DNA from: Bacteroidales bacterium
GTDB taxonomy: Bacteria > Bacteroidota > Bacteroidia > Bacteroidales > B18-G4
DNA: 34,878 nt
Reading direction: 5' to 3'
Assembly (NCBI GenBank): GCA_021107535.1
Contig: JAIOSQ010000074.1
Coordinates: 1-34,878, forward strand
Within the stretch, counting starts at the first letter, position 1. Every line of letters begins with the position of its first letter. Shown here in pieces: positions 7,661 to 34,374 of the stretch. The translations under genes were made by a program, and so were the position numbers. The notes beneath the pieces are model-generated. The model was given only the letters and a program-made list of their open reading frames with translations, was not told the origin of the DNA and did not search any database.

Positions 7661-7720
7661 GGAGTTCCTGGTTCCTGGTGGCTAGTGCCAACCTAACACC
7701 TAACATCTAACACCTAACAC
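7661..7720. repeat. Degenerate heptad tract
   Basis: ggagttc ctggttc ctggtgg ctagtgc caaccta acaccta acatcta acaccta acac in constant 7-nt phase, between convergent genes. Confidence 0.8.
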
Positions 7721-7722
7721 TT

Positions 7723-9411
7723 TTACCAGTTTACAACCACAAACTTTCTCTGAAACTGTTTTCCTTCCTGCTCTATAATCATAATATAGGTTCCGGCTTG
7801 CAGTGTGCTGATATCAATAAAATATACAGAAGCAGCATCAGTGGACGAAGTATGCAGAAGTTGTCCGCCCATGGAAAATATTTCAATTTTAGATACAGGC
7901 TTTTCACTTTTCACCCTGATATATCCTGGGGTAGCCGGATTAGGGTAGATGGTAAAAGTTTCATGAACCAGCTCTTCTACATCACTAAATGCATCAACCA
8001 ATTCAACATCAAGGATGGTGGCCTGCAAGTTGTTTAGCACAACATTTTCAAAAACCTGTGTGATATATCCGGAGGCTTTGAAACGTATGCTGTATGTGCC
8101 TTCGTGCAGCAACCTGCTGTAATTCCCTTCAGGAAGGGAAGAATACACCCAAGAGCTGTCAGACTCATGGCCAATAGCATAAACCTCAGCCACGAGCGGG
8201 TCACCGGTAGCAGAATCTGTAATCCTGCCTCTTAAACCGTACAGTCCCTGTTCCATATAGTTCAGGAATGACCTGTAATTGTAATCCCAGTGGGCCGGAA
8301 GCTGGTTGGCGGGTAATAGTTTTGTATTGGATATTTCCAGTGTGAACTCCCTCCCCTGGTGAAAATAGGTCATATAATCCTGCCTGCCACCGGCAATTGT
8401 ATACCATTGATATCCATTGGTAATTCCATTTTCAAATCCGCTCATATAGCCCGAAGGGGCATTTACATGAACGGTATCAGCATATTCACGGCACACATAC
8501 ACCCACCAGTCATCATCCGCAGCCAATTGGGCCCAGGTGTCCCACGGGTAATTGCATACTTCTGCACCTCCATGGATGTTGGAACTCATCACAAAGTGAT
8601 GTTCTTCTGCAAAGTCCATAAAGTTCATTGTTTCTATCTGCCATTCATTTCCGTCAGGGTGGGGTCCGTCTTCCGGGTCCGGGTAGTTCCTGTTCAGGTC
8701 GACATTGTGAGCATTATTACGAGTTGCACCGTAGATGTTTGAATTTCCGGCATGATATGCTCCGTCCGGATTTGCGAGAGGGTTGATATATATGTCAAGC
8801 TCATCAACCATATTGGTCAGCCGGGGATCTATACCGTAACCATTGAGCATGTAATCAATTAGTCGAAGCATCAATACGTAGCCTGTGGTTTCATCCCCAT
8901 GCATGGTGGAAGTATACAGGAATTCAGGTTCTCCTTCGGCCAACCCGACATTGTCAGATATCCTGGCAACAAGTAATTCCCTTCCCTGGTACGTATTCCC
9001 AATGCTGAAAACATCGCAAATATCCGGGAAGTCAGTTTCAAACTGGTACATCATGTCTACATAGGCATCATAGGTGGGGTAAAAATCCCAGGAGTCAATC
9101 GCCTTGATGTCCACCTGATCCAACATCCTTGGCTGGATCAGGGTGCCGGGAGCTTGCAGGATATTATAATCGAAACCCTGTGAAAGAAATTCTGAGAATT
9201 CCTTTTTATTCGCGTAGGCGTACACCTGCCGATCATCACTGATACCATCGATGGAGAGCATTCGTGAAAGTGCCTCAATGTCTGTGTCAGCATGAATGGA
9301 AAAAGTAAAATACACCTCGCCCCTATCCTTGAATATCTCCCCGATATCCTGGGCAGGACAAAGTCCTGTTAGTGCAGTAAGTACAATCAGAAGTAATGTT
9401 TTTCTAAGCAT
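7723..9411 (-). CDS. Secreted M14-family zinc carboxypeptidase with T9SS C-terminal sorting domain
   Basis: Signal peptide; YTSTMHGDETTGYVLMLRLIDYML (zinc-site HxxE-type), RNNAHNVDLNRNYPDP, HGGAEVCNYPWDT, FTLEISNTK; C-terminal FTIYPNPATPGYIRVKS...GTYIMIIEQEGKQFQRKFVVV sorting domain. Confidence 0.92.
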   Translation of the reverse strand: MLRKTLLLIVLTALTGLCPAQDIGEIFKDRGEVYFTFSIHADTDIEALSRMLSIDGISDDRQVYAYANKKEFSEFLSQGFDYNILQAPGTLIQPRMLDQVDIKAIDSWDFYPTYDAYVDMMYQFETDFPDICDVFSIGNTYQGRELLVARISDNVGLAEGEPEFLYTSTMHGDETTGYVLMLRLIDYMLNGYGIDPRLTNMVDELDIYINPLANPDGAYHAGNSNIYGATRNNAHNVDLNRNYPDPEDGPHPDGNEWQIETMNFMDFAEEHHFVMSSNIHGGAEVCNYPWDTWAQLAADDDWWVYVCREYADTVHVNAPSGYMSGFENGITNGYQWYTIAGGRQDYMTYFHQGREFTLEISNTKLLPANQLPAHWDYNYRSFLNYMEQGLYGLRGRITDSATGDPLVAEVYAIGHESDSSWVYSSLPEGNYSRLLHEGTYSIRFKASGYITQVFENVVLNNLQATILDVELVDAFSDVEELVHETFTIYPNPATPGYIRVKSEKPVSKIEIFSMGGQLLHTSSTDAASVYFIDISTLQAGTYIMIIEQEGKQFQRKFVVVNW

Positions 9412-9480
9412 GGCTTTAGTTTATTTGCTTGCAAAAATAATAATTAATGCTCATATAGCAACATAATGTATACCGGGATT

Positions 9481-10365
9481 TTACTGATAGTCTTTAATCA
9501 GTGAAGCAAGTTTATTGTATGTGGCTTTATTTGCTTTTACAAGGGGCAACCTGAGATTATTGCTGATGATGCCCATCGCATCGAGCGCTGCCTTGATGCC
9601 GGCTGGATTACCGTCTTCAAACAGTACCTCTATGATCTCAAGCAATGCATAATGAATTTCGCGTGCTTCTTCATATTTTCCGTTCAGTGATAAATTTACC
9701 ATACGAGAAAAATCTGACGGGAAAGCATTGGCAACCACAGAGATTACACCTTCAGCACCGAGTGCCATCATGGGAAAAGTAAGGGCATCATCCCCCGATA
9801 GAACTGAAAAGCCCTCAGGTTTGTTCTTAATGATCTCCATGACCTGCCCCAGGTTTCCGGATGCTTCCTTGATGCCGCTGATATTGTCAAAGTCATTTGC
9901 AAGCTTCAGCGTGGTATCTGCATTAATATTCGAACTGGTACGTCCGGGGACATTATAGAGTATGATAGGAACAGGGCTGACAGAGGCAATGGATCTGAAA
10001 TGGTAATAAATGCCTTTCTGATTGGGTTTATTGTAATACGGAACCACAGACAATATGCCGCTGATCCCTTCAAAATCCATGGATTTGATTGTATCAACGA
10101 TGGATTGTGTATTGTTGCCTCCAATGCCGACAAGCACCGGTAGCTTTTTCTCTGATTCCTCCAGGATATGATTAAGGACTGCAGTTTTTTCATCCCGTGA
10201 TAAAACCGGGGCTTCGCTGGTAGTGCCCAATGCCACCAGGAAATCGATACCTCCCTGCATCACATGCCTGACGAGCTTGCCAAGAGAAGTAAAATCAATA
10301 CTACCATAATTATGAAATGGGGTTATCAAGGCCACTCCGGCACCTTTTAGCATTTCAGATTTCAT
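9481..10365 (-). CDS. dapA: 4-hydroxy-tetrahydrodipicolinate synthase
   Basis: GAGVALITPFHNYGSIDF; ALGTTSEAPVLSRDEK; PIILYNVPGRTSSN; GIKEASGNL; VLSGDDALTFPMMALGAEGVISV. Confidence 0.96.
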   Translation of the reverse strand: MKSEMLKGAGVALITPFHNYGSIDFTSLGKLVRHVMQGGIDFLVALGTTSEAPVLSRDEKTAVLNHILEESEKKLPVLVGIGGNNTQSIVDTIKSMDFEGISGILSVVPYYNKPNQKGIYYHFRSIASVSPVPIILYNVPGRTSSNINADTTLKLANDFDNISGIKEASGNLGQVMEIIKNKPEGFSVLSGDDALTFPMMALGAEGVISVVANAFPSDFSRMVNLSLNGKYEEAREIHYALLEIIEVLFEDGNPAGIKAALDAMGIISNNLRLPLVKANKATYNKLASLIKDYQ

Positions 10366-10912
10366 CTTTTTTGTTTATAATGGTTATGTAGTGATCGATT
10401 TGTGTGATCAATTCTTCCAGCCCGTCTTTTTCCTGAAGACTGATCATCATGTCAAGATAAGCGGCACTGGCATCACGCTGCATGCCAACTTTGAATTTTG
10501 CCCTGCTTAAGCCCGTAATGAAAAGCAAAGGAAGGGAGTTTTCAGTACTGAGGTCAATGAGAATATCAAACTCACAAGCGATAAACTCCCTGACTGCCGT
10601 TGAGATTGGCCTGTAATTCCAACTCAAATTTGATGGATAGAAAAAATCGTATGATAACTTCGGAAGAAATTGCCCTGTAAGATGCTTGCTTTCAACATAG
10701 CCAAGCGCTTTTACTGTCTTACCGTTATCCTGAAGCTTCTTAACATAAGCACTTATTTTTCTGTATGCGGGTTCATCAGGCAGGAAGTATAATATGCCAA
10801 TATTCCCGGCTTCATCCAGATTCATGATCTTCCTGTTCCTTGATACCCGGCCGGCTTCTCTTCTAAGGAAAAACCTTCCGGCACTCTTTCTTATATTCGT
10901 GAAAATACTCAA
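10355..10912 (-). CDS. Conserved hypothetical protein (185 aa, Bacteroidota-type, DUF6913-like)
   Basis: Complete ORF overlapping the dapA start; ILYFLPDEPAYRKISAYVKKLQDNGKTVKALGYVESKHL. No confident functional motif. Confidence 0.65.
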   Translation of the reverse strand: MSIFTNIRKSAGRFFLRREAGRVSRNRKIMNLDEAGNIGILYFLPDEPAYRKISAYVKKLQDNGKTVKALGYVESKHLTGQFLPKLSYDFFYPSNLSWNYRPISTAVREFIACEFDILIDLSTENSLPLLFITGLSRAKFKVGMQRDASAAYLDMMISLQEKDGLEELITQIDHYITIINKKDEI

Positions 10913-10980
10913 GATAGAAAATGTATAATGTTGTAAGGACTTGTAAAGATATAGATTTTAGATGTTGGAATTACTGCACG

Positions 10981-11070: not shown

Positions 11071-11073
11071 TTA

Positions 11074-11469: not shown

Positions 11470-11479
11470 AGTAGCCTCC

Positions 11480-11665: not shown

Positions 11666-11684
11666 AAGTATCTTTTCCCTTTTG

Positions 11685-11716: not shown

Positions 11717-11914
11717 TTATTTTCTATAGAATTTGTTGTCAGTTGTTTGATGTCCTCCATATTGCAGTACAATATTTATTTTGCACAGCTGTCCGACATA
11801 GCAATTCAAGTATGTCTATATCTATTAATACCAGTATTCTAATTTTGTCACACAAAAAATTTGTTTAAATCAGTGAGACTTTAATTTTGAGAAACAAAAT
11901 TATTTAGTCGAACT

Positions 11915-12124
11915 GATCCCCCCGAGTACTCGGGGAGGGATCTCATGGGTTATATTCCCCGCCCCTTGGGGCGGCAAAATAAATAATCTATTTTTATACC
12001 CCGCTGCTTGTCGCTTGCGCCAAAGCTTCAGCGACGGAGCACGGCTGGGAGGTTCATTTTAGATGGTGCGTGATAAATGCTTGTCGAGAAACAAGCCATT
12101 AACAGGCCCGAATCTGGAGATTCG
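11915..12124. repeat. Cluster of palindromes / stem-loops (REP-like or mobile-element relic)
   Basis: CCCCGAGTACTCGGGG (11920-11935), CCGCCCC-TT-GGGGCGG (11959-11974), GTCGCT/AGCGAC (12010-12035), GCTTGT/ACAAGC (12079-12096), CGAATCT-GG-AGATTCG (12109-12124). Confidence 0.7.
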
Positions 12125-12252
12125 CCCCAGCGGGAGAGAAGAAGGAAAAATGAATAATGAAGAAGTTACACCCGGCAGGAAGTAATCCACTGGTTTTTTT
12201 TCTGTTTCGCCAAACTTTTCCAAAAACTAATTATGTCAAATCGTCTTTTGTA

Positions 12253-18897: not shown

Positions 18898-18902
18898 GTC
18901 AG

Positions 18903-19742: not shown

Positions 19743-19815
19743 AGGTGTTGGGTTTTGGGGGTTGGGGTTTGGGTTAGTTTTAAGTTTTGAGTTTTGAGTT
19801 TTGAGTTTTAAATTA
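19743..19815. repeat. Degenerate heptad tract (TTTTGAG-type)
   Basis: aggtgtt gggtttt gggggtt ggggttt gggttag ttttaag ttttgag ttttgag ttttgag ttttaaa in one 7-nt phase. Confidence 0.85.
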
Positions 19816-19847
19816 ATTCAGAATTCGACACCTGGTCCCATATTATT

Positions 19848-20040
19848 TATCTTTGCTATCAAAGCACCCTAATTCAAAACTTAAAACTTAAAACTCAAAA
19901 CCATTATCTGTGATCATCTGTTTAATCCGTTTCATCCGTGTTCCATTTAAATATAAAATCTCGCATACCAAATGAACAATCTTAAATATATTTGCATTAA
20001 AGCACCCAATTTAAAACTCAAAACTCAAAACTTAAAACTA
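19848..20040. repeat. Two imperfect direct copies of [TAnnTTTG - AAAGCACCC - AATT - AAAACTC/AAAACTT heptads]
   Basis: TATCTTTGctatcAAAGCACCCtAATTcAAAACTTAAAACTTAAAACTC (from 19848) and TATATTTGcattAAAGCACCCAATTtAAAACTCAAAACTCAAAACTTAAAAC (from 19987). Confidence 0.75.
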
Positions 20041-20074: not shown

Positions 20075-20752
20075 GTGAATTACTTAACTTCGCAGATTCA
20101 AATTAATGACATGCCTCTTGATCCATCATTTCCAACAAGACTGAAGCAGCAACTTTCATATGGATTACCGGGAATGTCGTCTCAGGAGAAGATGGTACCT
20201 GCCACAAGGCGAAAAGAAATACTAAACAGTAAAGGGTATCTTGCTGGGAGAAAAGCCGCTGTTTTAATTTGTTTTTATCCTGATCATCATCATAACATTC
20301 GATTGGTTTTGATCAAACGTAGTGTATATGACGGGGTCCACAGCGGGCAAATATCATTTCCGGGTGGAAAGCCTGAGCAAGAAGACACAGACCTGGTACA
20401 AACAGCCTTACGGGAAGCAATGGAAGAAACCGGTATTGACAGGAACAAGGTGGAGGTCTTAGGTAAACTGAGCACCATTTATATCCCACCAAGTAATTAT
20501 GTCGTACAGCCTGTTCTCGGCTGGCTGAGTACCGAGCCTGAATTTGTTCCTGAAGTTGCGGAAGTCTCGGAGATCCTGAGGATTCCTTTATCTGAGTTTT
20601 CTAATCCCGGAAATGTGCAGGAAAAAGAAATTATTCAAAGAAACTCACAAAAGGTGATGGTTCCCTGCTATTACATACAGGGGCACATTATTTGGGGAGC
20701 TACTGCGATGATACTTAGTGAGATGATAGACCTTATTAGTTTTAAGTTTTGA
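20075..20752 (+). CDS. NUDIX hydrolase, CoA pyrophosphatase-like
   Basis: GTG start at 20075 (alternative ATG 20111); HSGQISFPGGKPEQEDTDLVQTALREAMEETGI with NUDIX box GX5EX7REUXEEXGU. Confidence 0.92.
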   Translation: MNYLTSQIQINDMPLDPSFPTRLKQQLSYGLPGMSSQEKMVPATRRKEILNSKGYLAGRKAAVLICFYPDHHHNIRLVLIKRSVYDGVHSGQISFPGGKPEQEDTDLVQTALREAMEETGIDRNKVEVLGKLSTIYIPPSNYVVQPVLGWLSTEPEFVPEVAEVSEILRIPLSEFSNPGNVQEKEIIQRNSQKVMVPCYYIQGHIIWGATAMILSEMIDLISFKF

Positions 20753-20801
20753 GTTTTGAGTTTTGAATTAATTTAAAACTCAAAACTCAAAACTTAAAAC
20801 T
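20738..20801. repeat. Near-perfect inverted repeat of heptads between convergent genes
   Basis: AGTTTTAAGTTTTGAGTTTTGAGTTTTGAATT / AATTTAAAACTCAAAACTCAAAACTTAAAACT; about 32-nt arms with a single mismatch. Confidence 0.9.
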
Positions 20802-21220
20802 CATTGAACAATTATCTCATGCGTAAGCGTTGAACTCTTTAATAACATCGCACTTACGCCACAATACCTGTCCTGGGAAAGAATTATAGCTTTTTCTAAT
20901 TTTTTCATGGGCAGATCTTTACCCCTGAAAATATACCGGAGGTGAATGCTGTGATAATACTTCGGATGTTCATCAGTAAGTTCTCCTTCCACCTCAACAT
21001 TGAAATACTCAGGCACTACCCTCATTTTCTTCAGAATTGAGATCACATCCATCCCGGTGCAAGCTGCAAGCGAAACAAGGGTTAATCCTTTTGGCCTCGG
21101 CCCTCTGTTTTCTCCTCCTACTGCTTCCTCAGCATCGAGTATTATTTTGAAACCATTAATTTCAGCCTCAAAAGCCATATTTTCTTTCCAGGTGGTGTTG
21201 ATTTTTTGTTTCATAATCAA
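20801..21220 (-). CDS. OsmC family protein
   Basis: GGENRGPRPKGLTLVSLAACTGMDVISILKKMR; SQDRYCGVSAMLLKSSTLTHEI with the two conserved Cys positions. Confidence 0.9.
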   Translation of the reverse strand: MIMKQKINTTWKENMAFEAEINGFKIILDAEEAVGGENRGPRPKGLTLVSLAACTGMDVISILKKMRVVPEYFNVEVEGELTDEHPKYYHSIHLRYIFRGKDLPMKKLEKAIILSQDRYCGVSAMLLKSSTLTHEIIVQ

Positions 21221-21251: not shown

Positions 21252-21291
21252 ATTGTTTGGTGCTAAAATGAAGATGATGTTTTGGAGAGCA

Positions 21292-21408
21292 GGTACAGGG
21301 TACAAGGTACAAGGTACAGGGTGCAGGGGACGGGGGACGGGCAATCGACTATTACCTCGTTCTTCGGTGCTCGGTGTTCGTTCTTCGTTCTTCGATCTTC
21401 GGTCTTTA
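21292..21408. repeat. Long degenerate heptad tract (about 17 units)
   Basis: GGTACAG GGTACAA GGTACAA GGTACAG GGTGCAG GGGACGG GGGACGG GCAATCG ACTATTA CCTCGTT CTTCGGT GCTCGGT GTTCGTT CTTCGTT CTTCGAT CTTCGGT CTTTAA, all in one phase. Confidence 0.85.
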
Positions 21409-22476
21409 ATTGAAAAAGAATTCCCCGGGAATGATTCCTGCCGAGAATGAATCTACCTTCTCATTCAAATCCGGATCGATCCTGTATACCAGTCCGTTTT
21501 GAGTATAATCCAAAGGATTGCTGGTAAAAACCATTCCGGAAACCGAATCAAATCCCAATGCGTAAAACATTGTCGGAGATGATACTACAAGGTTTAATTC
21601 AAGTGTTTGTGCAGATACTTCCTGGGAATACAAGCCTCCCGGATAATTAAAAAACATCTTCTCCCCTGCCTTGTCAATCACCAATTTTTCAGGATGATCT
21701 GTTGTGCCCGGAAACTCCAGTGTTTTTGTGATGGAATAGTCCTGTGGGTCGATGCAGACCAATTTGCCTTTGGTATCATCCGCCCCGGGAAAACCGTTCC
21801 ATCCCTTTCCTGAACACATGACCCATACAAGTCCATTCTTATCCTGAACGATCCCAGTGGGTTTATCACCAACAATTAGACTTTTTATTGCCTGATCCGT
21901 ACTTATATCAATCACTGTTATGCTGCTATCAATAGACAATCCACCCTGGTTGAGTACCCAAACGCTCTCTCCTACTTGCAGCATTTTCTCAGGACCTGTC
22001 GCCGTGGCAATATTTCCGCTTATGGTATTTGAATTCAGATCAACAATGTAAACCTGGTTGTCCCAGCTTGTAACATAGGCCTTAAAGGCATCAAGGCCAA
22101 GAAAATACCTTGGAAGGTTGATCCCTTCTATAGAACCTGAAGACACCAGGTCGTCCTTTGCCGCTACTTCGATTCTTCCGGCATTGTTCACCACAATGTA
22201 TATCTTGTCCTGGTGGACACTGATAGATTGAACCAGGTTCCCGAGCGTAAATCCGTTCACCCCTTCAAATACATGATTATCAACTTCGTCCGTATCCCGA
22301 TAATAAATACTCAGAGTGCCACTGCCACTCTGAAAAGGCCCTTCATTTACAATAAAAACACGCTTATCGGTTTTTATCGGAATAACTGGATTGTCGTCAT
22401 CTTTTTTACAAGAGCTGATGATAAATACACCTGACAAGATCAGTAGTGCAATAAAGAGTAATTTTTTCTTGAACAT
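21406..22476 (-). CDS. Surface beta-propeller (YncE/DUF5074-like) lipoprotein, probable BtuG-like cobalamin-binding partner
   Basis: Lipobox SGVFIISSCKKDDDN; FIVNEGPFQSGSGTLSIYYRD, WVLNQGG, VDLNSNTISGNIATATGPEKMLQVG repeats; immediately downstream of the riboswitch-controlled TonB receptor gene. Confidence 0.78.
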   Translation of the reverse strand: MFKKKLLFIALLILSGVFIISSCKKDDDNPVIPIKTDKRVFIVNEGPFQSGSGTLSIYYRDTDEVDNHVFEGVNGFTLGNLVQSISVHQDKIYIVVNNAGRIEVAAKDDLVSSGSIEGINLPRYFLGLDAFKAYVTSWDNQVYIVDLNSNTISGNIATATGPEKMLQVGESVWVLNQGGLSIDSSITVIDISTDQAIKSLIVGDKPTGIVQDKNGLVWVMCSGKGWNGFPGADDTKGKLVCIDPQDYSITKTLEFPGTTDHPEKLVIDKAGEKMFFNYPGGLYSQEVSAQTLELNLVVSSPTMFYALGFDSVSGMVFTSNPLDYTQNGLVYRIDPDLNEKVDSFSAGIIPGEFFFN

Positions 22477-22481: not shown

Positions 22482-24383
22482 TTAATTTTTAAAGGTTAAT
22501 GAAATAGATAAATTAAAATTTCTTCCGGGCATGGGCCGATAGGCAACAAGCTGATAATCTTTATTAAAAATGTTGTTAAGCCTGGTAGCAATGCCGATAT
22601 TCATAAGTTTTGTCACAAATTCTTTTTTCAGGGAGATGTCCATAAGGTAAAAACCCGGCAGTATAGAAAGGTTGTCTGTTGTGGTGTAGCTTTCACCGGT
22701 ATAATTCCCGAAGAGAAGCATATGCCAGTGACTACAGCTAAACCCTATCTTTCCGGAAGCATTATGCAGCGGGGTATAGATCAACTGTTTTCCGTAGGTC
22801 TCGCCCGGGGCATCTTTGCTCTCATTGCTTGATCTGGAATAAGTGTAAGATAATCCCAGCTCAGCATGTTTCTGGTTTTTTTCAATATGGAAATTCGTTT
22901 CCAGTTCGATTCCCCGTGCCCATACTTTCTGAACATTATCTGCCTTCCAGAAGTTGTTTTGGGGATGCCAGAGGATCCAGTCATCCACCAGGGAAGAGTA
23001 GGCTGTAACAATAAATTCAAGGCCATGGAACTCGGCCCCTCTATAGAATTCCGTGATCATGCTTAGCTCGGCATTCCAGCTGTTTTCCGGCTTTATATCG
23101 GGGTTCCCCCCCGGTTGCCAGTATAATTCATTCATCGTTGGAAGCCTGTAATTCCTTGAGATGCTTATTTTGTTAGAAAGAAATGGAAACAAGGGTCCTT
23201 CAATGCCTATGGCCGGAGTGAACGGAAACAGATCATGCCCGTTGAACTCCTGCCTGGCTCCAACCATCATATCCCAATTTATACGGGAAATATGGTATTT
23301 ACCATTGGCAAAAGCAGCAAGCAGTTCTCTTGCTTCTCTCCCATTATAAGCTTCGATATCAGCCTGCTCGGCAGTCATACTGATGCCTGCATCAATGCTA
23401 ACATTTCCTGACAGCTGATGCCGGTATTCTGATTCAAAAAACCAGGTATCCGTATGAATGCTTGACTGCAGTGATATCAGCGGATCCGTATAATTTTCAT
23501 ATTCTGTAAACCAGGCAGTTTTAAGGCTCAGCACAGCATTTCTGAAAAAGCTTTTCCATTGCAGGGAAGTGCGGAAGGCGCGATCCGACTGATAAGCCTC
23601 ACTGGCATTCATAGTGGTGCTTGGAGGAATCTCACGAATGGCTTCCTGATACCAGAGAAAAAGATCCAGCTGATTCTTCTTAGCTATCTTTAGTGCGGCA
23701 TGGCCATTAAAGCCGAGGCCATTGGAAGCGCCATTCTCCAGGGTCTTTTTTTCACCCCTGTCCGATAAATAATTAAAGTCGTTCCGGGCCTCCTGCCCTG
23801 TAAATGCTAGTTTAAAATAGAACTTATCTCCAGATGTGTATGCTGTAACAGATGTACTCAAAGAGCCAAAGCTTCCTGCCCGCAGATTTAGCGAAGCCAG
23901 GGTATGCCCGGAAAACTCAGCCTGATTGTTCAAAAACACTGCACCACCTATTGTACCGCTGCCATAGCGTATGCCACTGCCACCGAATACAATGGCAGCA
24001 TTATTAAAAAATCCTGCAGGGACCAGCGAAAGGTCAGTAATACCCAGGCTGGGCATCTTCAGGTTTATCCCATTCCAAAAAATGCTGCTCTGGTTGGATG
24101 AAGTGCCTCTGAAAGACATGGTGGTCAATGTATTCTGTCCGTATGACCTGATGTACACAGAAGTATTTTCAGATAAAATATCACCTATGTTATTCCGAAG
24201 GTCCTGCTGCATGATGTCCGCATGCAGGTACTTAATATTTTGGCCGGTAGAAAAGTCTGAATACCTGTCAGCTGCAATACTCACGGTATCCAGTTGCATG
24301 ATGGTGTCGACCCTGATCTCCTGGGAGTTGCCATTGAAAGCAAGGCAGATCACAAAAAGCAGTATTATACCTTTTAATTTCAT
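22482..24383 (-). CDS. btuB: TonB-dependent outer membrane receptor, BtuB-like
   Basis: Plug domain (IGDILSENTSVYIRSYGQNTLTTMSFRGTSSNQSSIFWNGINLKMPSLGITDLSLVPAGFFNNAAIVFGGSGIRYGSGTIGGAVFLNN) and C-terminal NIFNKDYQLVAYRPMPGRNFNLSISLTFKN; cobalamin riboswitch upstream. Confidence 0.88.
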   Translation of the reverse strand: MKLKGIILLFVICLAFNGNSQEIRVDTIMQLDTVSIAADRYSDFSTGQNIKYLHADIMQQDLRNNIGDILSENTSVYIRSYGQNTLTTMSFRGTSSNQSSIFWNGINLKMPSLGITDLSLVPAGFFNNAAIVFGGSGIRYGSGTIGGAVFLNNQAEFSGHTLASLNLRAGSFGSLSTSVTAYTSGDKFYFKLAFTGQEARNDFNYLSDRGEKKTLENGASNGLGFNGHAALKIAKKNQLDLFLWYQEAIREIPPSTTMNASEAYQSDRAFRTSLQWKSFFRNAVLSLKTAWFTEYENYTDPLISLQSSIHTDTWFFESEYRHQLSGNVSIDAGISMTAEQADIEAYNGREARELLAAFANGKYHISRINWDMMVGARQEFNGHDLFPFTPAIGIEGPLFPFLSNKISISRNYRLPTMNELYWQPGGNPDIKPENSWNAELSMITEFYRGAEFHGLEFIVTAYSSLVDDWILWHPQNNFWKADNVQKVWARGIELETNFHIEKNQKHAELGLSYTYSRSSNESKDAPGETYGKQLIYTPLHNASGKIGFSCSHWHMLLFGNYTGESYTTTDNLSILPGFYLMDISLKKEFVTKLMNIGIATRLNNIFNKDYQLVAYRPMPGRNFNLSISLTFKN

Positions 24384-24478
24384 CCGATAAGCCCTTTGCG
24401 GGTTTATATCCAGGGAGAAAACTTTGAATAAATCTTGTGAATTTATTGCAAGCCTTTTACCCGAAAGCTTTTATTTTG

Positions 24479-24675
24479 CATTCAATGGCAGGTCTTCTGA
24501 CTTATCTCAGTTCCGAATGGCCTTCCCATCAGCTCGTTGCGACAGTGGCTTAAGGTTATCCGAAACTCCAGGGCTCAAATAGCCTGAGATTCACAGCATC
24601 GGGAAATGTTGGGGATTTTCACCCCATTCCCTATTATGGCGTTTCCCGCGGGGCGGGATTGCACACCATTGAATG
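24479..24675 (-). ncRNA. Cobalamin (B12) riboswitch
   Basis: Minus: GGGAATGGGGTGAAAATCCCC...GCTGTGAATCTC...GCCACTGT...AAGTCAGAAGACCTGCC (B12-box region), closed by a 10-bp P1-like pairing CATTCAATGG/CCATTGAATG. Confidence 0.93.
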
Positions 24676-24778
24676 ATGTAAAGGTAGAAATTATTTGCAT
24701 GAATAGAACCGACTTTAAAATTTTTATTTATTTTTACCGTTGCTTATTCATACAGCCCTTTCTTAAAACGCCGACAAA

Positions 24779-25042: not shown

Positions 25043-25080
25043 TATCCGGTCACCGGCCAACGGTTACCGGCTACCGGAAG
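25043..25080. repeat. Short heptad tract (ACCGGCY-type)
   Basis: ATCCGGT CACCGGC CAACGGT TACCGGC TACCGGA. Confidence 0.6.
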
Positions 25081-25253: not shown

Positions 25254-25395
25254 TAATAATAATCAACAAAATCAAGCTAATCGACTGATTAACGAAAGTT
25301 AACCCAATACTTGTCAGTTTTTTGATTTAGCTTTCTAATCTAACAATTAGCCCCAGTTTTTGTTTTGATTCAAATTGACTAATAACAGGCAAATA

Positions 25396-27552
25396 ATGAC
25401 TGTAAATAAACTACAAGCTCTACTCGAATTACTTCTTTCTGAAAATGATATTTTACGAAACAGCATAAATAATTCCAGTAGTGCCGGCATGATGAAGGAT
25501 GCGCTCAGGAAGTGGATCATGTCTTATATTCAAACCCGTCCCTATCTTCTTGATTGCTGTACAGCAGGTGACGTCAGCCGTAACAAATTTGACAAGCTTA
25601 ACTGGAAGGATGTTGCATCCCTCCGCATACTCGATTACCTGGACAATGCAGGTATCAGGGTCCGGGATCCCAGTATCAGTAAGAAAGAGGTAGTATCTGA
25701 TCCCTTCGGACAATTATACGCCGCCGTAAAAAGAGGAAAATATGAGTTCAGAATTGACTTTGTACTGGATATGCTCATGCTGTTCAGGCAGTTTTCAGGA
25801 AAACTCAGCAAGAGTATCCCACCCAAAAAGAAGGTACTGGAATGGATGTCGAGGCATCCTTCGGGACTGGATCCTGAAATAGTCGCCCTGCGTAATGAAA
25901 ACAGGAACCGGATCATCAGAAAGTTCATTGAACTGATGGAAAAAGGCAGGATAAAGGATGCGAAATTCATATTTGAACCCGGACTTTCATATGATGAGAA
26001 ATATGCAATGATGTTGAAATGGTGGCAAACCCGGCTGTTTCATTTAAGGTTTGCCATCAGGGATCCTGAGATCCTTAATGAAATGCTGGACTATTCCATA
26101 TCCGGGAAAAGAATGAAACTCCTGCGCAAAGCAAAGGAGGCCGGCATTCCTACTTTTGTAAACCCTCACTATCTTTCTCTGCTGAATGTGAATCCACCTG
26201 CTCATCTTAAAGGAACCGATGAAGCGATCCGTGAATATGTTTTTTACAGCAAGGAACTGGTGAAGGAATTTGGAAATATCGTAGCATGGGAAATGGAAGA
26301 TATTGTTGAGGCGGGCAAGCCCAATGCGGCCGGATGGATACTGCCCTCCAACCATTCCATGCACAGGCGATATCCGGAAGTGGCTATTCTCATTCCTAAC
26401 AACGTGGGGAGAGCTTGTGCAGGATTGTGTTCATCCTGCCAGCGGATGTATGATTTCCAGCGCGGTCACCTGAATTTTGATCTGAGCCGCTTGAAACCCA
26501 AAAGTAGCTGGCCTGACAGGCTTGCCCAGTTCATGGATTATTTCAGGCAGGATTCCCAGCTTCGCGATATCCTGATCACAGGGGGAGATGCATTGATGGC
26601 ATCCGACAAATCGCTTGAAGCAGTACTGGATGCAGTTTATGAAATGGCCATAAATAAGATTGAAGACAACAAAAAACGGCCTGATGGCAAGAAATACGCT
26701 GAAATGCGCAGAGTCAGGCTGGGAACCCGCTTGCCGACATACTTGCCGCAGCGTATCACCATGGACCTGGTCTCCGTGCTTGCTGCATTCAAAAAGAAAG
26801 CTGTGAAAGCCGGCATGACCCAGTTTGTGATTCAAACCCATTTCGAAACTGCAATGGAGATCACGCCTGTGACAAGAAAGGCAATCGAAAGACTGCAATC
26901 TGCCGGATGGATCGTAACCAACCAGCTGGTATTCACTGCAGGGGCTTCAAAAAGGGGACATACCGCTAAACTTCGCCAGGTTCTAACTGATCTTGGCGTA
27001 TTGAATTATTACACCTTTACGGTTAAAGGATTTAAGGAAAATTCCAACAACTTTGCTACCAACGAAAGAGCAGTGCAGGAGCAAATGCAGGAAAAAATCC
27101 TTGGGATCCTTCCGCCGGAGTATCTCGAAGAAATCGCAAACATCTCCCTCCATCCTGAAGACAGCAAAAAGATCCTGACAGATATCAGAAAGAGATCAGG
27201 GCTTCCTTTCCTTGCCCTCGACAGAAACGTTCTTAACCTTCCGGGTGTAGGTAAAAGCCTTACCTTTAGAACCATCGGCATCACTCCCGGAGGGAAAAGG
27301 GTACTGCTGTTCGACCATGACCATACCCGTCGCCACAGCCCGATCATCGAGAAGATGGGAAAAGTCACCATCGTTGAATCTAAATCCGTTGCTGCCTATA
27401 TTGCGCAAATGGAAAGTATGGGAGAAGATCCTGCTGAATATGAATCAATGTACGGATACTCCATCTCCAAAACCGAAGCCATTATGCCGGTATACCAGTA
27501 TCCGGACTATGAGTTTGAGACTACTGAGGAGATGACAAATTTGGAAGTTTGA
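25396..27552 (+). CDS. KamA-family (lysine 2,3-aminomutase-like) radical SAM protein, extended form (718 aa)
   Basis: ATG at 25396 (ORF track starts at TTG 25375). Radical SAM CxxxCxxC in VGRACAGLCSSCQRMYDFQ; LITGGDALMAS; RLGTRLPTYLPQRI; QTHFETAMEITPVTRKAIERLQSAGWIVTNQLVFTAGASKRGHTAKLRQVLTDLGVLNYYTFTVKGFKE; NLPGVGKSLTF at the PLP-lysine position. Confidence 0.87.
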   Translation: MTVNKLQALLELLLSENDILRNSINNSSSAGMMKDALRKWIMSYIQTRPYLLDCCTAGDVSRNKFDKLNWKDVASLRILDYLDNAGIRVRDPSISKKEVVSDPFGQLYAAVKRGKYEFRIDFVLDMLMLFRQFSGKLSKSIPPKKKVLEWMSRHPSGLDPEIVALRNENRNRIIRKFIELMEKGRIKDAKFIFEPGLSYDEKYAMMLKWWQTRLFHLRFAIRDPEILNEMLDYSISGKRMKLLRKAKEAGIPTFVNPHYLSLLNVNPPAHLKGTDEAIREYVFYSKELVKEFGNIVAWEMEDIVEAGKPNAAGWILPSNHSMHRRYPEVAILIPNNVGRACAGLCSSCQRMYDFQRGHLNFDLSRLKPKSSWPDRLAQFMDYFRQDSQLRDILITGGDALMASDKSLEAVLDAVYEMAINKIEDNKKRPDGKKYAEMRRVRLGTRLPTYLPQRITMDLVSVLAAFKKKAVKAGMTQFVIQTHFETAMEITPVTRKAIERLQSAGWIVTNQLVFTAGASKRGHTAKLRQVLTDLGVLNYYTFTVKGFKENSNNFATNERAVQEQMQEKILGILPPEYLEEIANISLHPEDSKKILTDIRKRSGLPFLALDRNVLNLPGVGKSLTFRTIGITPGGKRVLLFDHDHTRRHSPIIEKMGKVTIVESKSVAAYIAQMESMGEDPAEYESMYGYSISKTEAIMPVYQYPDYEFETTEEMTNLEV

Positions 27553-27555
27553 TGA

Positions 27556-27646
27556 ATAGAGAATAGTGAACAAGGAATAAGAATAAGAATAAGAATAAGA
27601 ATAAGAATAACGAAGACCGAGCAACGAATATCGAACAACGAACCGG
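27556..27646. repeat. Heptad tract with internal hexamer block (AATAAG)n
   Basis: gaataga gaatagt gaacaag gaataag then about 6x AATAAG then cgaagac cgagcaa cgaatat cgaacaa cgaaccg. Confidence 0.8.
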
Positions 27647-28975: not shown

Positions 28976-29149
28976 TATTCTGCAATTATAAATTTCGATT
29001 TTGGACAATGTGCACAACTCATTTATCTGTTCAATACTACGCATACAAATCAATCTCCGTTACGTATATGCAGTTTGATTACAATTATTTGTCTTGTAAA
29101 TATACGAAATAATTCTATGTATCTGGTGAGGTTTGTTTGGAGGAAGCAT

Positions 29150-29203
29150 AAAGTATTTAAAGTACTTAAAGTATTTAAAGTATTAAAAGTACTTAAAGTA
29201 TGG
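29150..29203. repeat. 9-nt tandem repeat AAAGTAYTT
   Basis: AAAGTATTT AAAGTACTT AAAGTATTT AAAGTATTA AAAGTACTT AAAGTATGG. Confidence 0.85.
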
Positions 29204-29307
29204 TGTTGAATTTTGGATTATGGATTATGAATGTTTGACCGCCAGGCTTTTATGAGGGAATGAGAGGATGACGGGAAGTGAGGAAGAGGGGATGATCGAA
29301 CCCCACA

Positions 29308-29427: not shown

Positions 29428-30546
29428 ATGAATAAACGACAGATAGTAATTATAATTCTCACAATGTCCGTATTTGCCTTTCTAAACAGTTGCCATATTG
29501 GCAGGTACTTTTCCAGGAACGTGGCTGATACCGGTGATCATAAAAGGTTTCCGGCATATACCGTTAAAGCTGCTCCTCCTGTATTCAATTTTGCGAAAGC
29601 TACGAATGAACAGCCCCCGATATTGCCGGAAGCGTATAACCCAAAAGGGAAATATTCAGATTTCACCGACTTCCTTGAAAAGAATAAAGGCCTTTCATTT
29701 CTAATCATCAGGAATGACAGCATTTTGTGTGAACGTTATTTTGATGGCTATGACCGCTCTACCATTACTGCGGGTTTCAGTGTTGCCAAGGTTTTTGTTT
29801 CTGCCCTAACCGGGATCGCGGTTCAGGAGGGTTATATTGAGAGTGTAGATCAAACAGTTTACGACTTTCTTCCCGAAATGAAGGATCCGGGATTTAAGGA
29901 CGTAACGATCGAAAACCTGCTGAATATGCGATCCGGAATAAAATTCAGTGAAACATACTTCAACCCCTTCAGCCATATAGCCAAATTTTACTACGGCAAT
30001 AACCTCAGCAAATATGTACATAAACTGAAAGTAAACAAAGCTCCGGGAGAAGAATATAATTATCAGAGTTGTAATACTGAGATTTTGGCCATGATCATTG
30101 AAAAAAGCACAGGAAAACCATTTGCGACATATTTCGAGGAAAAGATTTGGAGTCAGCTGGGAATGGAATCTAATGCCACCTGGAATTATGACAGTGAGAA
30201 GTATGGATTGGTAAAGGCTTTTGGCGGACTGAATGCAATTCCTGTTGATTTTGCCAAATTCGGCCGTTTATATCTGAACAATGGCAATTGGGAAGGTAAA
30301 CAAATTATTCCTGAGGCCTGGGTAAAACATTCGATGAGCATTCATAACGACTCAAGGGATTCACAAAATTTTCCCTATTCCTATTTCTGGAGAGTTATGG
30401 AAAGTGGATCTGTTTTTGGCAAGGGAATTCTCGGACAGTACATTTACCTTAATCCTGCCCGTAATCTGATCATCGTAAAATTCGGAAAGAAAAATGCCGA
30501 CATCAACTGGCCTGAACTTTTTGAGGAAATAGCAAAGCAATATTAG
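29428..30546 (+). CDS. Serine hydrolase, class C beta-lactamase-like lipoprotein
   Basis: ATG at 29428 (MNKRQIVIIILTMSVFAFLNSCHIGRYF); SxxK-type TAGFSVAKVFVSALTGIAVQEG; YNYQSCNTEILAMIIEKSTGKPF. Confidence 0.87.
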   Translation: MNKRQIVIIILTMSVFAFLNSCHIGRYFSRNVADTGDHKRFPAYTVKAAPPVFNFAKATNEQPPILPEAYNPKGKYSDFTDFLEKNKGLSFLIIRNDSILCERYFDGYDRSTITAGFSVAKVFVSALTGIAVQEGYIESVDQTVYDFLPEMKDPGFKDVTIENLLNMRSGIKFSETYFNPFSHIAKFYYGNNLSKYVHKLKVNKAPGEEYNYQSCNTEILAMIIEKSTGKPFATYFEEKIWSQLGMESNATWNYDSEKYGLVKAFGGLNAIPVDFAKFGRLYLNNGNWEGKQIIPEAWVKHSMSIHNDSRDSQNFPYSYFWRVMESGSVFGKGILGQYIYLNPARNLIIVKFGKKNADINWPELFEEIAKQY

Positions 30547-30548
30547 TT

Positions 30549-30612
30549 GGGCGATAGGCAGTGGGCGTTGGGCGTTAGGTGTTCGATGTTCGATGTTCGG
30601 TACTCGGTGCTC
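30549..30612. repeat. Degenerate heptad tract abutting the stop codon of the MORN-like gene
   Basis: Minus strand: GAGCACC GAGTACC GAACATC GAACATC GAACACC TAACGCC CAACGCC CACTGCC TATCGCC CAAC. Confidence 0.85.
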
Positions 30613-31421
30613 TATTCCACCTCTTCAAAGTAAACCTTTTCGCTTTTCACCTCCCCATCTTTGTAACGGGTTTCCCTGATGATAACACCCAAAGAATTAT
30701 ATTCAATCCACTTACCTGATTTTATACCGTTCTCATACTGCCCCTCTGTTTTCAGTTGCCCGTTATCATGGAATTCCAAGAACTCACCGACAGCGAGATT
30801 ATTTTCATAGTATTCAATGGATTGAAGGCTGTCATTGGGATAAAACGTTTTCTGGATACCTTCAAAAATTCCATTATGATATTGAAATTCAGCGATTTTT
30901 TTACCGGCCATATCATACCATATGGTAAGGCCATCCCTTTGTCCTTTCTTATACTGAGATGATTCCTGAAGCTGTGCATTTTCATAATACAATTCAGACT
31001 TACCGTGTTTTACCCCGTTTTTATAATTGATCTTGCGTTGCGGATTTCCGCCGTATTTATAGGATATCGATAATCCATCCAGTTTATCATCAACAAAAAA
31101 CTCTTCTCTTGAAAGATATCCCCTGGAATCTATGGCAATATATATTCCGTTCTTTTTGCCGTTTTTGTATGTTTCAAGTTTTGCTAAAAACCCCCTGGGA
31201 TGATAATTAAGCCAGCTCCCTTCCTTAATATCATCAACATATGTACCTCTGCTTCGGATATTTCGCTTTTTCACATCCCAATAGCCCTGTTTTAAGCCAT
31301 TTTCATCAGTAAAATTGATGGTATCCCCTGATGCCGTGACTTCGTACTCTGCCTGGGAAAATAACTGAACACTGCTGAAAAGAATGACTGATAAAAAAAG
31401 AAAAAAGCTTGATTTTTTCAT
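30612..31421 (-). CDS. MORN-repeat-variant (YwqK-like) secreted protein
   Basis: Signal peptide; repeats KQGYWDVKKRNIRSRGTYVDDIKEGSWLNYHPRGFLAKLETYKNGKKNGIYIAID, NGVKHGKSELYYENAQLQESSQYKKGQRDGLTIWYD, ENGIKSGKWIEYNSLG. Confidence 0.88.
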   Translation of the reverse strand: MKKSSFFLFLSVILFSSVQLFSQAEYEVTASGDTINFTDENGLKQGYWDVKKRNIRSRGTYVDDIKEGSWLNYHPRGFLAKLETYKNGKKNGIYIAIDSRGYLSREEFFVDDKLDGLSISYKYGGNPQRKINYKNGVKHGKSELYYENAQLQESSQYKKGQRDGLTIWYDMAGKKIAEFQYHNGIFEGIQKTFYPNDSLQSIEYYENNLAVGEFLEFHDNGQLKTEGQYENGIKSGKWIEYNSLGVIIRETRYKDGEVKSEKVYFEEVE

Positions 31422-31478
31422 AATAAAAGGTTTTAGGATAACAAAAGTAGGAAGCCTGCTTCAAATAGCAAGCTAAAA

Positions 31479-32762
31479 TCAGGTTTTTTCTCCCACGAGG
31501 TCGAATTCCGTGGCCGAGCTTACCCTGATCTTATAAAATTCGCCAATACGCACCGAATTATCGCTTATGATCACTTCATTATCCACCTCAGGTGAGTCAT
31601 ATTCGGTTCTTCCCAGAAACACTTCACCTTCCTTTGCGTCAATGATCGTCTTGAACACTTTGCCTATCTTCTTTTCATTCAGCTTAAGCGAAATGCTTTG
31701 CTGAAGCTCCATAAGCCTTTCTACCCTTTCCTGTTTTAACGCTTCAGGAACATCATCTGTCAGATTGAAGGAAGAGGTACCCTCTTCAGCTGAATAGGCA
31801 AATACGCCCAACCTGTCGAAGCGGCTTTCTTCAACAAATCTCATCAGTTCCATGAAATTCTCCTCTGTCTCTCCCGGATAACCAACAAGCATTGTGGTAC
31901 GTAATGCTATATCAGGCAACAGTTCTCTGAGCTTATACACCAGTTTCTTCGTTTCGGTACTTCCTATGCTGCGCTTCATCGATTTCAGGATGGGCTCGCT
32001 GATATGCTGTAATGGAATATCGAGGTAATTACAAATGTTATCCCGCTCGCGCATCACGCGGAATACATCATCCGGAAAAGAAGCAGGATATGCATAATGC
32101 AGCCTGATCCACTCCAGGCCTTTTATGTCTGAAAGCTTCTCAAGCAAAGTTGCCAGTTTTTGCTCTTTATAAAGGTCCATCCCGTACCATGTCAGGTCTT
32201 GGGCGATCAGGATCAATTCCTTAACTCCCTTCGATACAAGATATTCTGTCTCTTTCACCAGGGATTCGGTGGTACTGGAACGCTGATTGCCACGAATCAG
32301 CGGGATAGCACAAAAGGAGCATCTCCTGTCGCAACCTTCAGATATCTTCAGGTATGCATAGTGAGAAGGTGTTGTGAGATAGCGTTCACCGATCAATTCC
32401 TTCCTGGGATCAAAACCAAGGTCTTTTAAAATTGCCGGAATATCCTCAGTGCCATAAAACCCATCCACTTCGCGGATCTCCGATCTCAGCTGAGAAGCAT
32501 ATCGTTGTGAAAGGCAGCCCGTGACAAATAATTTCTCAAATTGTTTGTTCTTTTTTGCTTCGGCATATTCCAGAATGGTATTGATGGATTCTTCTTTGGC
32601 ATCAGCAATAAAGCCACAGGTATTGATGATCACATAATCGGCCGGTTCTTCAGACTCATGGCTGATTTCAAGCCCCCTGGCTTTAAGTTCTCCCAGGAGG
32701 TTTTCAGAATCTACGAGGTTTTTCGAACATCCGAGGGTGATGATATTGACCTTTTTAGGCAT
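31479..32762 (-). CDS. rimO: Ribosomal protein S12 methylthiotransferase RimO
   Basis: MPKKVNIITLGCSKNLVDSENLLGEL; KISEGCDRRCSFCAIPLIRGNQRSS; C-terminal TRAM-like region. Confidence 0.96.
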   Translation of the reverse strand: MPKKVNIITLGCSKNLVDSENLLGELKARGLEISHESEEPADYVIINTCGFIADAKEESINTILEYAEAKKNKQFEKLFVTGCLSQRYASQLRSEIREVDGFYGTEDIPAILKDLGFDPRKELIGERYLTTPSHYAYLKISEGCDRRCSFCAIPLIRGNQRSSTTESLVKETEYLVSKGVKELILIAQDLTWYGMDLYKEQKLATLLEKLSDIKGLEWIRLHYAYPASFPDDVFRVMRERDNICNYLDIPLQHISEPILKSMKRSIGSTETKKLVYKLRELLPDIALRTTMLVGYPGETEENFMELMRFVEESRFDRLGVFAYSAEEGTSSFNLTDDVPEALKQERVERLMELQQSISLKLNEKKIGKVFKTIIDAKEGEVFLGRTEYDSPEVDNEVIISDNSVRIGEFYKIRVSSATEFDLVGEKT

Positions 32763-32765
32763 CTG

Positions 32766-33722
32766 TCAGGAAGATTGAAAGAGGGAATCGACAAATTCAT
32801 CTCTGTTAAACACCTGCAGGTCTTCTATTTTTTCACCTATCCCAATGTACTTAACAGGAATTTTGAACTGGTCTGAAATGCCGATCGCTACACCTCCTTT
32901 GGCAGTGCCATCGAGTTTGGTGAGCGCCAGGGATGTGACTTCGGTGGTATTTGTGAATTGGCGTGCCTGTTCAATGGCATTCTGGCCGGTGGAAGCATCG
33001 AGGATAAGCAACACATCATGTGGTGCATTAGGGATCACCTTTTGCATCACTCTTTTGATCTTGCTCAACTCATTCATCAGGTTGATCTTGTTATGCAATC
33101 TGCCTGCTGTATCCACAATTATAATATCAACATTTTTATTCACTGCTTCCTGCATTGTTTCAAAGGCAACGGAAGCCGGATCAGCTCCCATGCCCTGAGT
33201 CACCATGGGTACCCCTGCCCTATCAGCCCAGATCTGCAACTGCTCGACGGCAGCAGCACGAAAAGTGTCGCTGGCACCAAGCATCACCGATTTTCCAGCT
33301 TTCTTGAACTGATATGCAAGTTTGCCTATTGTAGTTGTTTTGCCAACGCCATTCACCCCCACAACCATGATCACATAGGGGGTTTTTTCGAGTGACGCTT
33401 CAAAATCCGGTAGCTCTGATTTAGCATTTTCCTGCAACAGCGATGCAATTTCCTCTTTCAGCATGTTGTTAAGCTCGGCAGTACCAAGGTATTTATCCCT
33501 GGCCACCCTCTCTTCTATCCTTTCGATGATCTTGAGAGTAGTTTCCACACCAACATCAGATGTAACAAGGATCTCTTCCAGATCATCAAGAACCTCATCA
33601 TCTACTTTGGACTTGCCAACGATGGCTTTAGAAAGTTTCGAAAAAACACTGGTCCTGGTTTTATCAAGCCCCTCGTCCAGTTTTTCTTTTTTTTCTTTCG
33701 AGAATATTTTAAAAACACCCAT
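32766..33722 (-). CDS. ftsY: Signal recognition particle receptor FtsY
   Basis: VVGVNGVGKTTTIGKLAYQFKKAGKSVMLGASDTFRAAAVEQLQIWADRAGVP; DTAGRLHNKINLMNELSKIKRV; TKLDGTAKGGVAIGI. Confidence 0.97.
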   Translation of the reverse strand: MGVFKIFSKEKKEKLDEGLDKTRTSVFSKLSKAIVGKSKVDDEVLDDLEEILVTSDVGVETTLKIIERIEERVARDKYLGTAELNNMLKEEIASLLQENAKSELPDFEASLEKTPYVIMVVGVNGVGKTTTIGKLAYQFKKAGKSVMLGASDTFRAAAVEQLQIWADRAGVPMVTQGMGADPASVAFETMQEAVNKNVDIIIVDTAGRLHNKINLMNELSKIKRVMQKVIPNAPHDVLLILDASTGQNAIEQARQFTNTTEVTSLALTKLDGTAKGGVAIGISDQFKIPVKYIGIGEKIEDLQVFNRDEFVDSLFQSS

Positions 33723-33737
33723 GATATCAGAACTTAT

Positions 33738-33775
33738 AAAAAAAGCTTCTTCCGTAAAAAGGAAAAAGCTTTTTA
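33738..33775 (-). terminator. Intrinsic terminator-like hairpin between DUF4295 and ftsY
   Basis: Minus: AAAGCTTTTTCC tttttac GGAAGAAGCTTT followed by a T-run. Confidence 0.6.
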
Positions 33776-33792
33776 AATGAGATTTCGACTCC

Positions 33793-33945
33793 TTATTTCT
33801 TTGCTAAAAATTCCTTTACCTTATCGTTAGGAATAATATCTTCTTTAAATGAGTATGCGCCGGATTTGGGAGATTTCACCATTCTGATCACTTTCGCGAA
33901 GTCCTTTCCAGCACTTTGTAATGAAGCAACTACTTTCTTAGCCAT
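33793..33945 (-). CDS. DUF4295 family small protein
   Basis: Manual translation MAKKVVASLQSAGKDFAKVIRMVKSPKSGAYSFKEDIIPNDKVKEFLAKK*; missed by the ORF track (50 aa). Confidence 0.88.
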   Translation of the reverse strand: MAKKVVASLQSAGKDFAKVIRMVKSPKSGAYSFKEDIIPNDKVKEFLAKK

Positions 33946-33953
33946 GGTATATA

Positions 33954-34139
33954 TTATTTAATTTCTTTATGAACGGTCATTCTCTTGAGGATCGGATTAT
34001 ATTTTTTGATCTCGAGCCTGTCAGGAGTATTTTTTTTGTTTTTGGTGGTGATATAACGTGAAGTACCTGGCATTCCGCTGTTTTTATGCTCGGTGCACTC
34101 CAAAATCACCTGTATTCTTTGATCTTTCGATTTAGCCAT
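33954..34139 (-). CDS. rpmG: 50S ribosomal protein L33
   Basis: [61 protein letters not shown]. Confidence 0.95.
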
Positions 34140-34238
34140 TTTCTGATTCTCCTATAATTTTCGGGGTGCAAAAATACATTTCTTTTCTTAAATATCAAAA
34201 TATTAATAGAATATTTTTTTTAGAAGTCTATAGTTAGA

Positions 34239-34374
34239 ATGGTGTTGAGTGTTAGGTGTTAGGCCATTCGAAAAGCTCAGGACAAGTTGTTGGGTGTTGA
34301 GTTGATTGATCGATGTTTGAATAATACTAATTTGACTTCTATCCAGTATCCAGCATCCAGTATCCAGTATCCCA
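34239..34374. repeat. Two heptad tracts (GGTGTTA-type and TATCCAG-type)
   Basis: gtgttga gtgttag gtgttag (34242-34262); ttgttgg gtgttga (34286-34301); TATCCAG TATCCAG CATCCAG TATCCAG TATCCCA (34339-34374). Confidence 0.75.

What the first reader, a model, noticed from the sequence alone, without database searches (positions are those of the whole stretch)
7661..34374. A family of degenerate heptad (7-nt period) tracts at about ten intergenic sites
Tracts at 7661, 19743, 19871/20012, 20738, 21292, 25043, 27556, 29211, 30549, 34239 and 34339 all keep a strict 7-nt phase, yet the unit changes gradually within and between tracts: TTTTGAG, TAACACC, GGTACAR, CTTCGNT, ACCGGCY, GAACAAC, GAACATC, TATCCAG. 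Several fit a loose consensus nAAnAyC on one strand (TAACACC, GAACATC, GAACAAC, CAACACC), suggesting one family. None lies inside a gene body; they occur in convergent, divergent and co-directional gaps. Known comparison: heptameric STRR repeats of filamentous cyanobacteria, which have fixed units. Here the period is conserved rather than the sequence, which suggests a templated or slippage process with a 7-nt step, or a structural or binding role read in 7-nt register.
Basis: partly seen in the sequence, partly recalled or inferred. Interest (0 to 1): 0.85.

Follow-up and report, generated by a model that had tools for sequence, protein, structure and literature searches.

The report
Self-renewing seven-base repeats between genes
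An uncultured Bacteroidota bacterium and its relatives carry an estimated eight hundred or so short arrays of seven-base repeats between their genes, many starting right at a stop codon; between species the array sites stay put while the repeated word changes, which shows fast array turnover and leaves open a role at the 3' ends of genes.

Summary
In 559 kb of this genome, 132-134 tracts with strong lag-7 identity lie in about 74 kb of intergenic DNA. Other lags from 3 to 13 give 2-11 tracts, except lag 8 with 41; 478 kb of coding DNA has 5, and shuffles give 3. The feature is genus- to family-wide and nearly absent elsewhere in the order.

It is not one nAAnAyC family. About 60 units recur more than chance allows, and some come as ordered composite arrays copied to many loci. 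Between two species with 91.5% identical gene flanks, array sites are conserved (Fisher p = 1.2e-7), but only 1 of 12 shared sites keeps its unit. Neighbouring units are more alike than distant ones, and their differences show an ordinary mutation spectrum. These fit self-renewing arrays made by slippage-like 7-nt duplication and deletion, plus dispersal. Reverse-transcriptase templating is not supported: RVT_1 was not found in this genome or in two congeners.

Arrays cluster directly after stop codons, and at least two ordered families are oriented in the gene's sense. Neutral slippage does not explain that, and a 3'-end RNA role remains possible. I class this as a new variant of heptameric simple-sequence repeats (LSSR/STRR).

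The parts
7661..7690 (+). GTTCCTG/GTGGCTA heptads 8 nt after the stop of the + gene ending at 7653, in that gene's sense (family A-like)
7690..7722 (-). TAACACC (AGGTGTT in sense) array abutting the stop of the - gene 7723-9411
19747..19814 (.). GTTGGGG to AGTTTTG gradient array, left end of a ~280 bp dispersed element
19871..19902 (.). AAAACTT/AAAACTC array inside the dispersed element
20008..20040 (.). AATTTAAAACTC array, right end of the dispersed element, preceded by CACCC and a TAnnTTTGC-like box
20738..20768 (+). AGTTTTG array; overlaps the end of the NUDIX ORF and supplies its TGA stop (20750-20752)
20770..20803 (-). AAAACTC array, inverted mate of 20738-20768, reaching the OsmC gene end; perfect 30-bp hairpin
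21291..21341 (.). GGTACAA, GGTACAG, GGTGCAG, GGGACGG ordered gradient; same order at L027:13818 (94% over 51 nt)
21357..21406 (-). TTCGNTC (GAAGACC/GAAGAAC in sense) array abutting the stop of the - gene 21406-22476
25043..25080 (.). ACCGGCY heptads, degenerate
27554..27643 (+). family B ordered array GAATAGA-GAATAGT-GAACAAG-GAATAAG-(AATAAG)n-CGAAGAC..., starting 1 nt after the stop of 25375-27552
29149..29201 (.). 9-nt period array TAAAGTATT
29206..29232 (.). GGATTAT heptads
29252..29295 (.). 8-nt period array
30546..30602 (.). GTTGGGC, GGCGTTA, TGTTCGA ordered gradient in a convergent gap; similar order at L018:18649
34241..34263 (.). GGTGTTA heptads
34339..34373 (.). TATCCAG array; the exact 3-mer of this unit occurs 145 times in the genome

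Best explanation
These are self-renewing heptanucleotide arrays, a degenerate kind of long simple-sequence repeat. Once a few 7-nt units exist in DNA that tolerates change, mainly just past stop codons, replication slippage or short unequal recombination duplicates and deletes them about 7 nt at a time. Point mutations are then spread or lost with the units, so the array persists at its site while its unit drifts. On top of this, array-bearing segments with a fixed order of units are copied to other loci, which gives each species a recurring vocabulary. Shown here: periodicity, intergenic confinement, site conservation with unit turnover, local unit duplication, ordered composite families and a stop-codon bias. 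Inferred: the polymerase or recombination step, and why 7 is favoured. Not explained by this model: the sense orientation of ordered families directly after stop codons, for which selection or a 3'-end insertion bias must be added.
For: Lag 7 far exceeds other lags, and only in gaps. Unit identity falls from 0.893 between neighbours to 0.79 at five units apart; neighbours are 0.884 alike against 0.810 with unit order shuffled, and 19 of 50 arrays are individually significant. Ti/Tv between neighbouring units is 1.08, close to 1.26 for orthologous intergenic substitutions. In 61 orthologous gaps the tract is in both species in 12, G000 only in 6, G003 only in 1, neither in 42 (p = 1.2e-7); units differ by 2.1 of 7 positions where flank divergence predicts about 0.6. 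One site has about 14 units in one species and about 2 in the other. 132 tracts use 60 units, against 108-123 for random 7-mers. Family B ordered arrays sit in unrelated flanks at 29 loci. 36 of 132 tracts have a second copy that includes non-periodic flank.
Against: Slippage alone does not predict shared units at unrelated sites, a sharp left boundary of family B, or sense orientation after stops. No same-species strains were available, so no single 7-nt gain or loss was seen directly. Why 7 and 8 dominate over 5 and 6 is not explained.
Confidence: 0.62

Rival explanations
1. Functional mRNA 3'-end (and partly 5'-leader) elements: arrays are transcribed with the upstream gene and read in 7-nt register by an RNA-binding protein or the terminating ribosome, so period and orientation are selected while sequence is loose.
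For: 55 tract edges lie within 10 nt of a stop against 28 expected (maximum 40 of 300 placements); start edges 9 against 12.5. Related units after stops share sense orientation 116:55 (0 of 300 random). Family A is 7 of 7 in sense after stops in two species. Family B in co-directional gaps is 12:2 sense, 11 in convergent gaps, 0 in divergent gaps, often supplying the stop codon. Family B and TATCCAG RNAs are unstructured.
Against: The unit is hardly conserved at orthologous sites. Only some families are oriented; TATCCAG is not. DNA past stops is also the least constrained, and arrays placed there can replace a stop codon harmlessly.
Confidence: 0.2
2. Small mobile repeats: short palindromic or composite elements insert into gaps and carry heptads with them; the arrays are cargo or target of a transposase-driven element.
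For: The ~280 bp element with arrays at both ends is repeated. A REP-like palindrome is embedded in heptads of different units, and one such insertion is absent in G003. Family B has sharp boundaries.
Against: At 84 of 132 tracts only the periodic part is repeated elsewhere in the sampled DNA. No target-site duplication or transposase was tied to the arrays.
Confidence: 0.12
3. Templated synthesis by a reverse transcriptase or telomerase-like enzyme with a 7-nt step.
For: Fixed unit length, ordered gradients and a defined left edge with a variable right end in family B.
Against: No RVT_1 match in G000, G001 or G002 (one in G003), while many order members have them. There are dozens of units, and the Ti/Tv is ordinary with no A bias.
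Confidence: 0.04
4. Assembly artefact of a metagenome bin.
For: The genome is a 341-contig assembly; contig ends carry periodic tracts slightly more often (7.0% against 3.5%).
Against: Three congeners in separate assemblies show the same architecture with other units. Coding DNA is free of it, and gene flanks align cleanly across the arrays.
Confidence: 0.02

Closest known systems
Long simple-sequence repeats (LSSR) with heptanucleotide excess (Mrazek et al. 2007, as cited in PMC4679880 and PMC4692102)
   Same: 7 nt is the commonest unit length, intergenic, with polymerase slippage proposed.
   Different: Here one genome holds about 60 units in ~130 sampled arrays, highly degenerate, with site conservation and unit turnover shown between species, and oriented families after stops.
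Cyanobacterial heptameric STRR and GGGGA(C/T)T / Xanthomonas GGGAATC repeats (PMC4692102; STRR otherwise from memory)
   Same: Heptameric, intergenic, often at the same gap in related species with length and sequence variation.
   Different: One or a few fixed units per genome there; a shifting vocabulary here.
TAACTGA direct repeats of Beggiatoaceae, Cyanobacteria and some Bacteroidetes (PMC4679880)
   Same: Heptamer arrays, sometimes mixed with other heptamers; reported in a few Bacteroidetes; may overlap stop codons.
   Different: There one unit, mostly forward and just upstream of start codons; here many units and an excess after stop codons.
Small dispersed repeats (SDR) of Nostoc, described as often embedded in heptameric arrays (Elhai et al. 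2008, from memory; paper not held)
   Same: A short palindrome embedded in heptad arrays is seen here too.
   Different: Different sequences and phylum; mobility not shown here.
REPIN/RAYT elements (PMC3116915)
   Same: Intergenic short palindromes, for the embedded element only.
   Different: Heptad arrays themselves are not palindromic REP doublets; RAYT was not searched.

Membership tests
Heptanucleotide LSSR (Mrazek 2007) | Unit series longer than expected by chance in that genome | tested here: met
   134 tracts against 3 in shuffles
Heptanucleotide LSSR (Mrazek 2007) | Heptamers the most abundant unit length, mainly non-coding | tested here: met
   Lag 7 134, lag 8 41, others 2-11; 5 in coding DNA
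Heptanucleotide LSSR (Mrazek 2007) | Length changes by replication slippage | tested here: inconclusive
   Array expansion and local unit duplication seen, but no direct 7-nt event in one strain
Cyanobacterial STRR / GGGAATC-type repeats | One or few fixed heptamer units per genome | tested here: not met
   60 units in 132 tracts
TAACTGA repeats | TAACTGA unit | tested here: not met
   Not among the G000 or G003 consensus units
TAACTGA repeats | Forward, just upstream of start codons | tested here: not met
   9 edges within 10 nt of starts against 12.5 expected; 55 against 28 at stops
RT- or telomerase-templated repeats | A reverse transcriptase in the genome | tested here: not met
   No RVT_1 match in G000 at 91% completeness
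Intrinsic terminators | Stable hairpin in the sense RNA followed by U run | tested here: not met
   Families A and B and TATCCAG have shuffle-level folding; only the inverted pair at 20738-20803 folds strongly
REPIN | Palindromic REP doublet with a RAYT in the genome | not tested
   The palindrome is seen embedded in arrays; RAYT not searched

The most novel reading that the evidence does not exclude
The post-stop arrays are a sense-strand 3'-end code read in 7-nt register: an RNA-binding protein or the terminating ribosome needs the period and a loose unit class, so selection keeps array, site and orientation while units drift within each species.
Probability: 0.13. Interest if true: 0.88.

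Novelty: new variant of a known kind. Interest (0 to 1): 0.6.

Why it matters
Heptanucleotide excess in bacterial repeats has been known since 2007 without a tested cause. This genus offers hundreds of arrays at orthologous sites whose units turn over within about 9% divergence. That lets slippage rate, step size and inter-locus copying be measured, and it lets one ask why 7 nt is preferred. The sense-oriented ordered families that begin at stop codons would, if functional, be an undescribed kind of bacterial 3'-end element.

Tried and rejected
One family with consensus nAAnAyC: rejected, 17% of units. RT-templated origin: RVT_1 absent and ordinary mutation spectrum. Terminator hairpins as the general role: folding at shuffle level except for the one inverted pair. 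General rule that units read the same way outward from every gene edge: only a weak stop-start effect (0.529 against 0.501). Pure in-place slippage from random seeds: rejected by the recurring vocabulary and ordered families. Rfam: only a cobalamin riboswitch. Empty-site analysis of family B in C265 found no orthologous region in G003. The Elhai 2008 paper is not held.
Full report
What was checked. The window is one contig of a 3.41 Mb, 341-contig Bacteroidota assembly, 91% complete. I wrote a simple codon-based gene caller and sampled 559 kb of the genome, 449 kb of the congener G003 with ~90% DNA identity, and smaller samples of other relatives.

The periodicity is real. In the window, lag-7 identity in gaps is 0.320, against 0.264-0.290 at lags 2-6 and 8-13 (lag 1 is 0.3285, from base runs) and 0.256 in coding DNA. 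Eleven lag-7 tracts compare with at most one in 500 shuffles. In 559 kb, 134 intergenic tracts (132 without N runs) compare with 2-11 at other lags from 3 to 13, 41 at lag 8, 5 in 478 kb of coding DNA and 3 in shuffles. Scaling suggests roughly 800 per genome (inference). Lag 8 has its own vocabulary (TCTCTGAY, TTAACAGA, GTTAATCC), and some arrays switch between 6, 7 and 8.

Distribution. The exact TATCCAG trimer of units occurs 145 times in this genome with none in the reversed control, 1-16 times in congeners, rarely in the family and not in the other families sampled in the order. Congeners and the three same-family genomes sampled have heptad arrays with other units. 18 genomes of other families give 3 lag-7 and 4 lag-8 tracts in 34 kb of gaps.

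Units. 132 tracts use 60 units (up to rotation and strand), against 108-123 for random intergenic 7-mers, so units recur. Two species prefer partly different units (2 of 300 permutations reach the observed difference); for example ACTGGAT has 10 tracts in G000 and 1 in G003, and ACCCGGT/ACCCGGC/ACCGGAT has 1 and 8.

Turnover. In 61 orthologous gaps with 91.5% identical flanks, both species have a tract in 12, G000 only in 6, G003 only in 1, neither in 42 (Fisher p = 1.2e-7). The association holds for gaps of 120-250 nt (7/1/0/9, p = 4e-4), is suggestive for longer ones (p = 0.07), and is not testable for short ones. Only 1 of 12 shared sites keeps its unit. Units differ by 2.1 of 7 positions, against 3.1 between non-orthologous gaps and about 0.6 expected from flank divergence. 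Examples: TGGATAC against CGGATAC at L006:9578, and about 14 units against about 2 at L046:13468.

Mode of growth. Neighbouring units are 0.884 alike, against 0.810 when unit order is shuffled, and identity decays with separation. Ti/Tv of unit differences is 1.08, against 1.26 for intergenic substitutions between species. This is what stepwise duplication with ordinary mutation gives, and it does not look like an A-biased diversity-generating mechanism. RVT_1 has no match in G000, G001 or G002.

Dispersal. Several tracts are ordered composites that recur. Family B (GAATAGA-GAATAAA-GAACAAG-GAATAAG-(AATAAG)n) is found at 29 loci in three species with unrelated flanks and a left boundary about 14 nt before GAACAAGG. 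The 26-mer core was the search key, so conservation inside it is by construction; the evidence is the conserved -14 to -2 stretch followed by flank at background level. The GGTACAA to GGGACGG gradient recurs at two loci. Window 19762-20040 is a ~280 bp dispersed element with arrays at its ends. In all, 36 of 132 tracts have a copy elsewhere that includes non-periodic flank.

Position. 55 tract edges lie within 10 nt of a stop codon, against 28 expected from random placement in the same gaps (maximum 40 of 300); start edges are 9 against 12.5. Related units within 15 nt after a stop share orientation in 116 of 171 pairs (0 of 300 random). Pairs are not independent, so the random flips, not the pair count, carry the test. 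Family A is 7 of 7 in sense after stops in two species. Family B has 12 sense and 2 antisense in co-directional gaps, 11 in convergent gaps and none in divergent gaps; in several loci its GAATAG/GAATAA unit is the stop codon. Random placement ignores the promoter constraint at the other edge, so part of the stop excess may be passive. Sense RNAs of families A and B and of TATCCAG are not structured; the inverted pair at 20738-20803 makes a 30-bp hairpin.

Reading. The best account is a self-renewing heptad array, as proposed for heptanucleotide LSSR (Mrazek 2007, via PMC4679880 and PMC4692102), combined with dispersal of composite segments. The novelty lies in the range of units within one genome, the site-conserved but unit-turning-over behaviour, and the oriented families at stop codons. 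Open-access searches found heptamers in a few Bacteroidetes (PMC4679880) but not this pattern. A function at 3' ends is possible but not shown.

Noticed in passing
L139:6720-6790; L004:~2450-2517; L017:~1470-1530; L058:~11918-11990: A REP-like palindrome (CCACCTACGCTAAAGCTTCGGCGGACGCAGTGG and variants) is embedded in heptad arrays of different units and is absent with its arrays at one orthologous site in G003. It resembles SDR elements of Nostoc.
   Followed up: partly
window 11864-12134: A dispersed intergenic repeat with more than a dozen partial copies in the genus, unrelated to the heptads.
   Followed up: no
window 24470-24685 (-): Cobalamin riboswitch (Rfam RF00174, 89.5 bits) upstream of a TonB-dependent receptor at 22482-24383 (-) and a DUF5074 protein.
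   Followed up: yes
L049:2-149, L013:3331-3385, L021:5245-5296, L033:10978-11023: Long 8-nt period arrays with their own vocabulary (TCTCTGAY, AACAGATT, GTTAATCC), looking like heptads with one inserted base.
   Followed up: partly
window 19841-19865 and 19985-20008: Arrays AATTC/AATTTAAAACTC are preceded by CACCC and a TAnnTTTGC stretch like the Bacteroidota -7 box, repeated at several loci.
   Followed up: partly
G000 contig ends: 8 of 115 contig ends carry a 6-9 nt period tract within 80 nt, against 3.5% of random stretches, so long arrays may break the assembly and be under-counted.
   Followed up: yes
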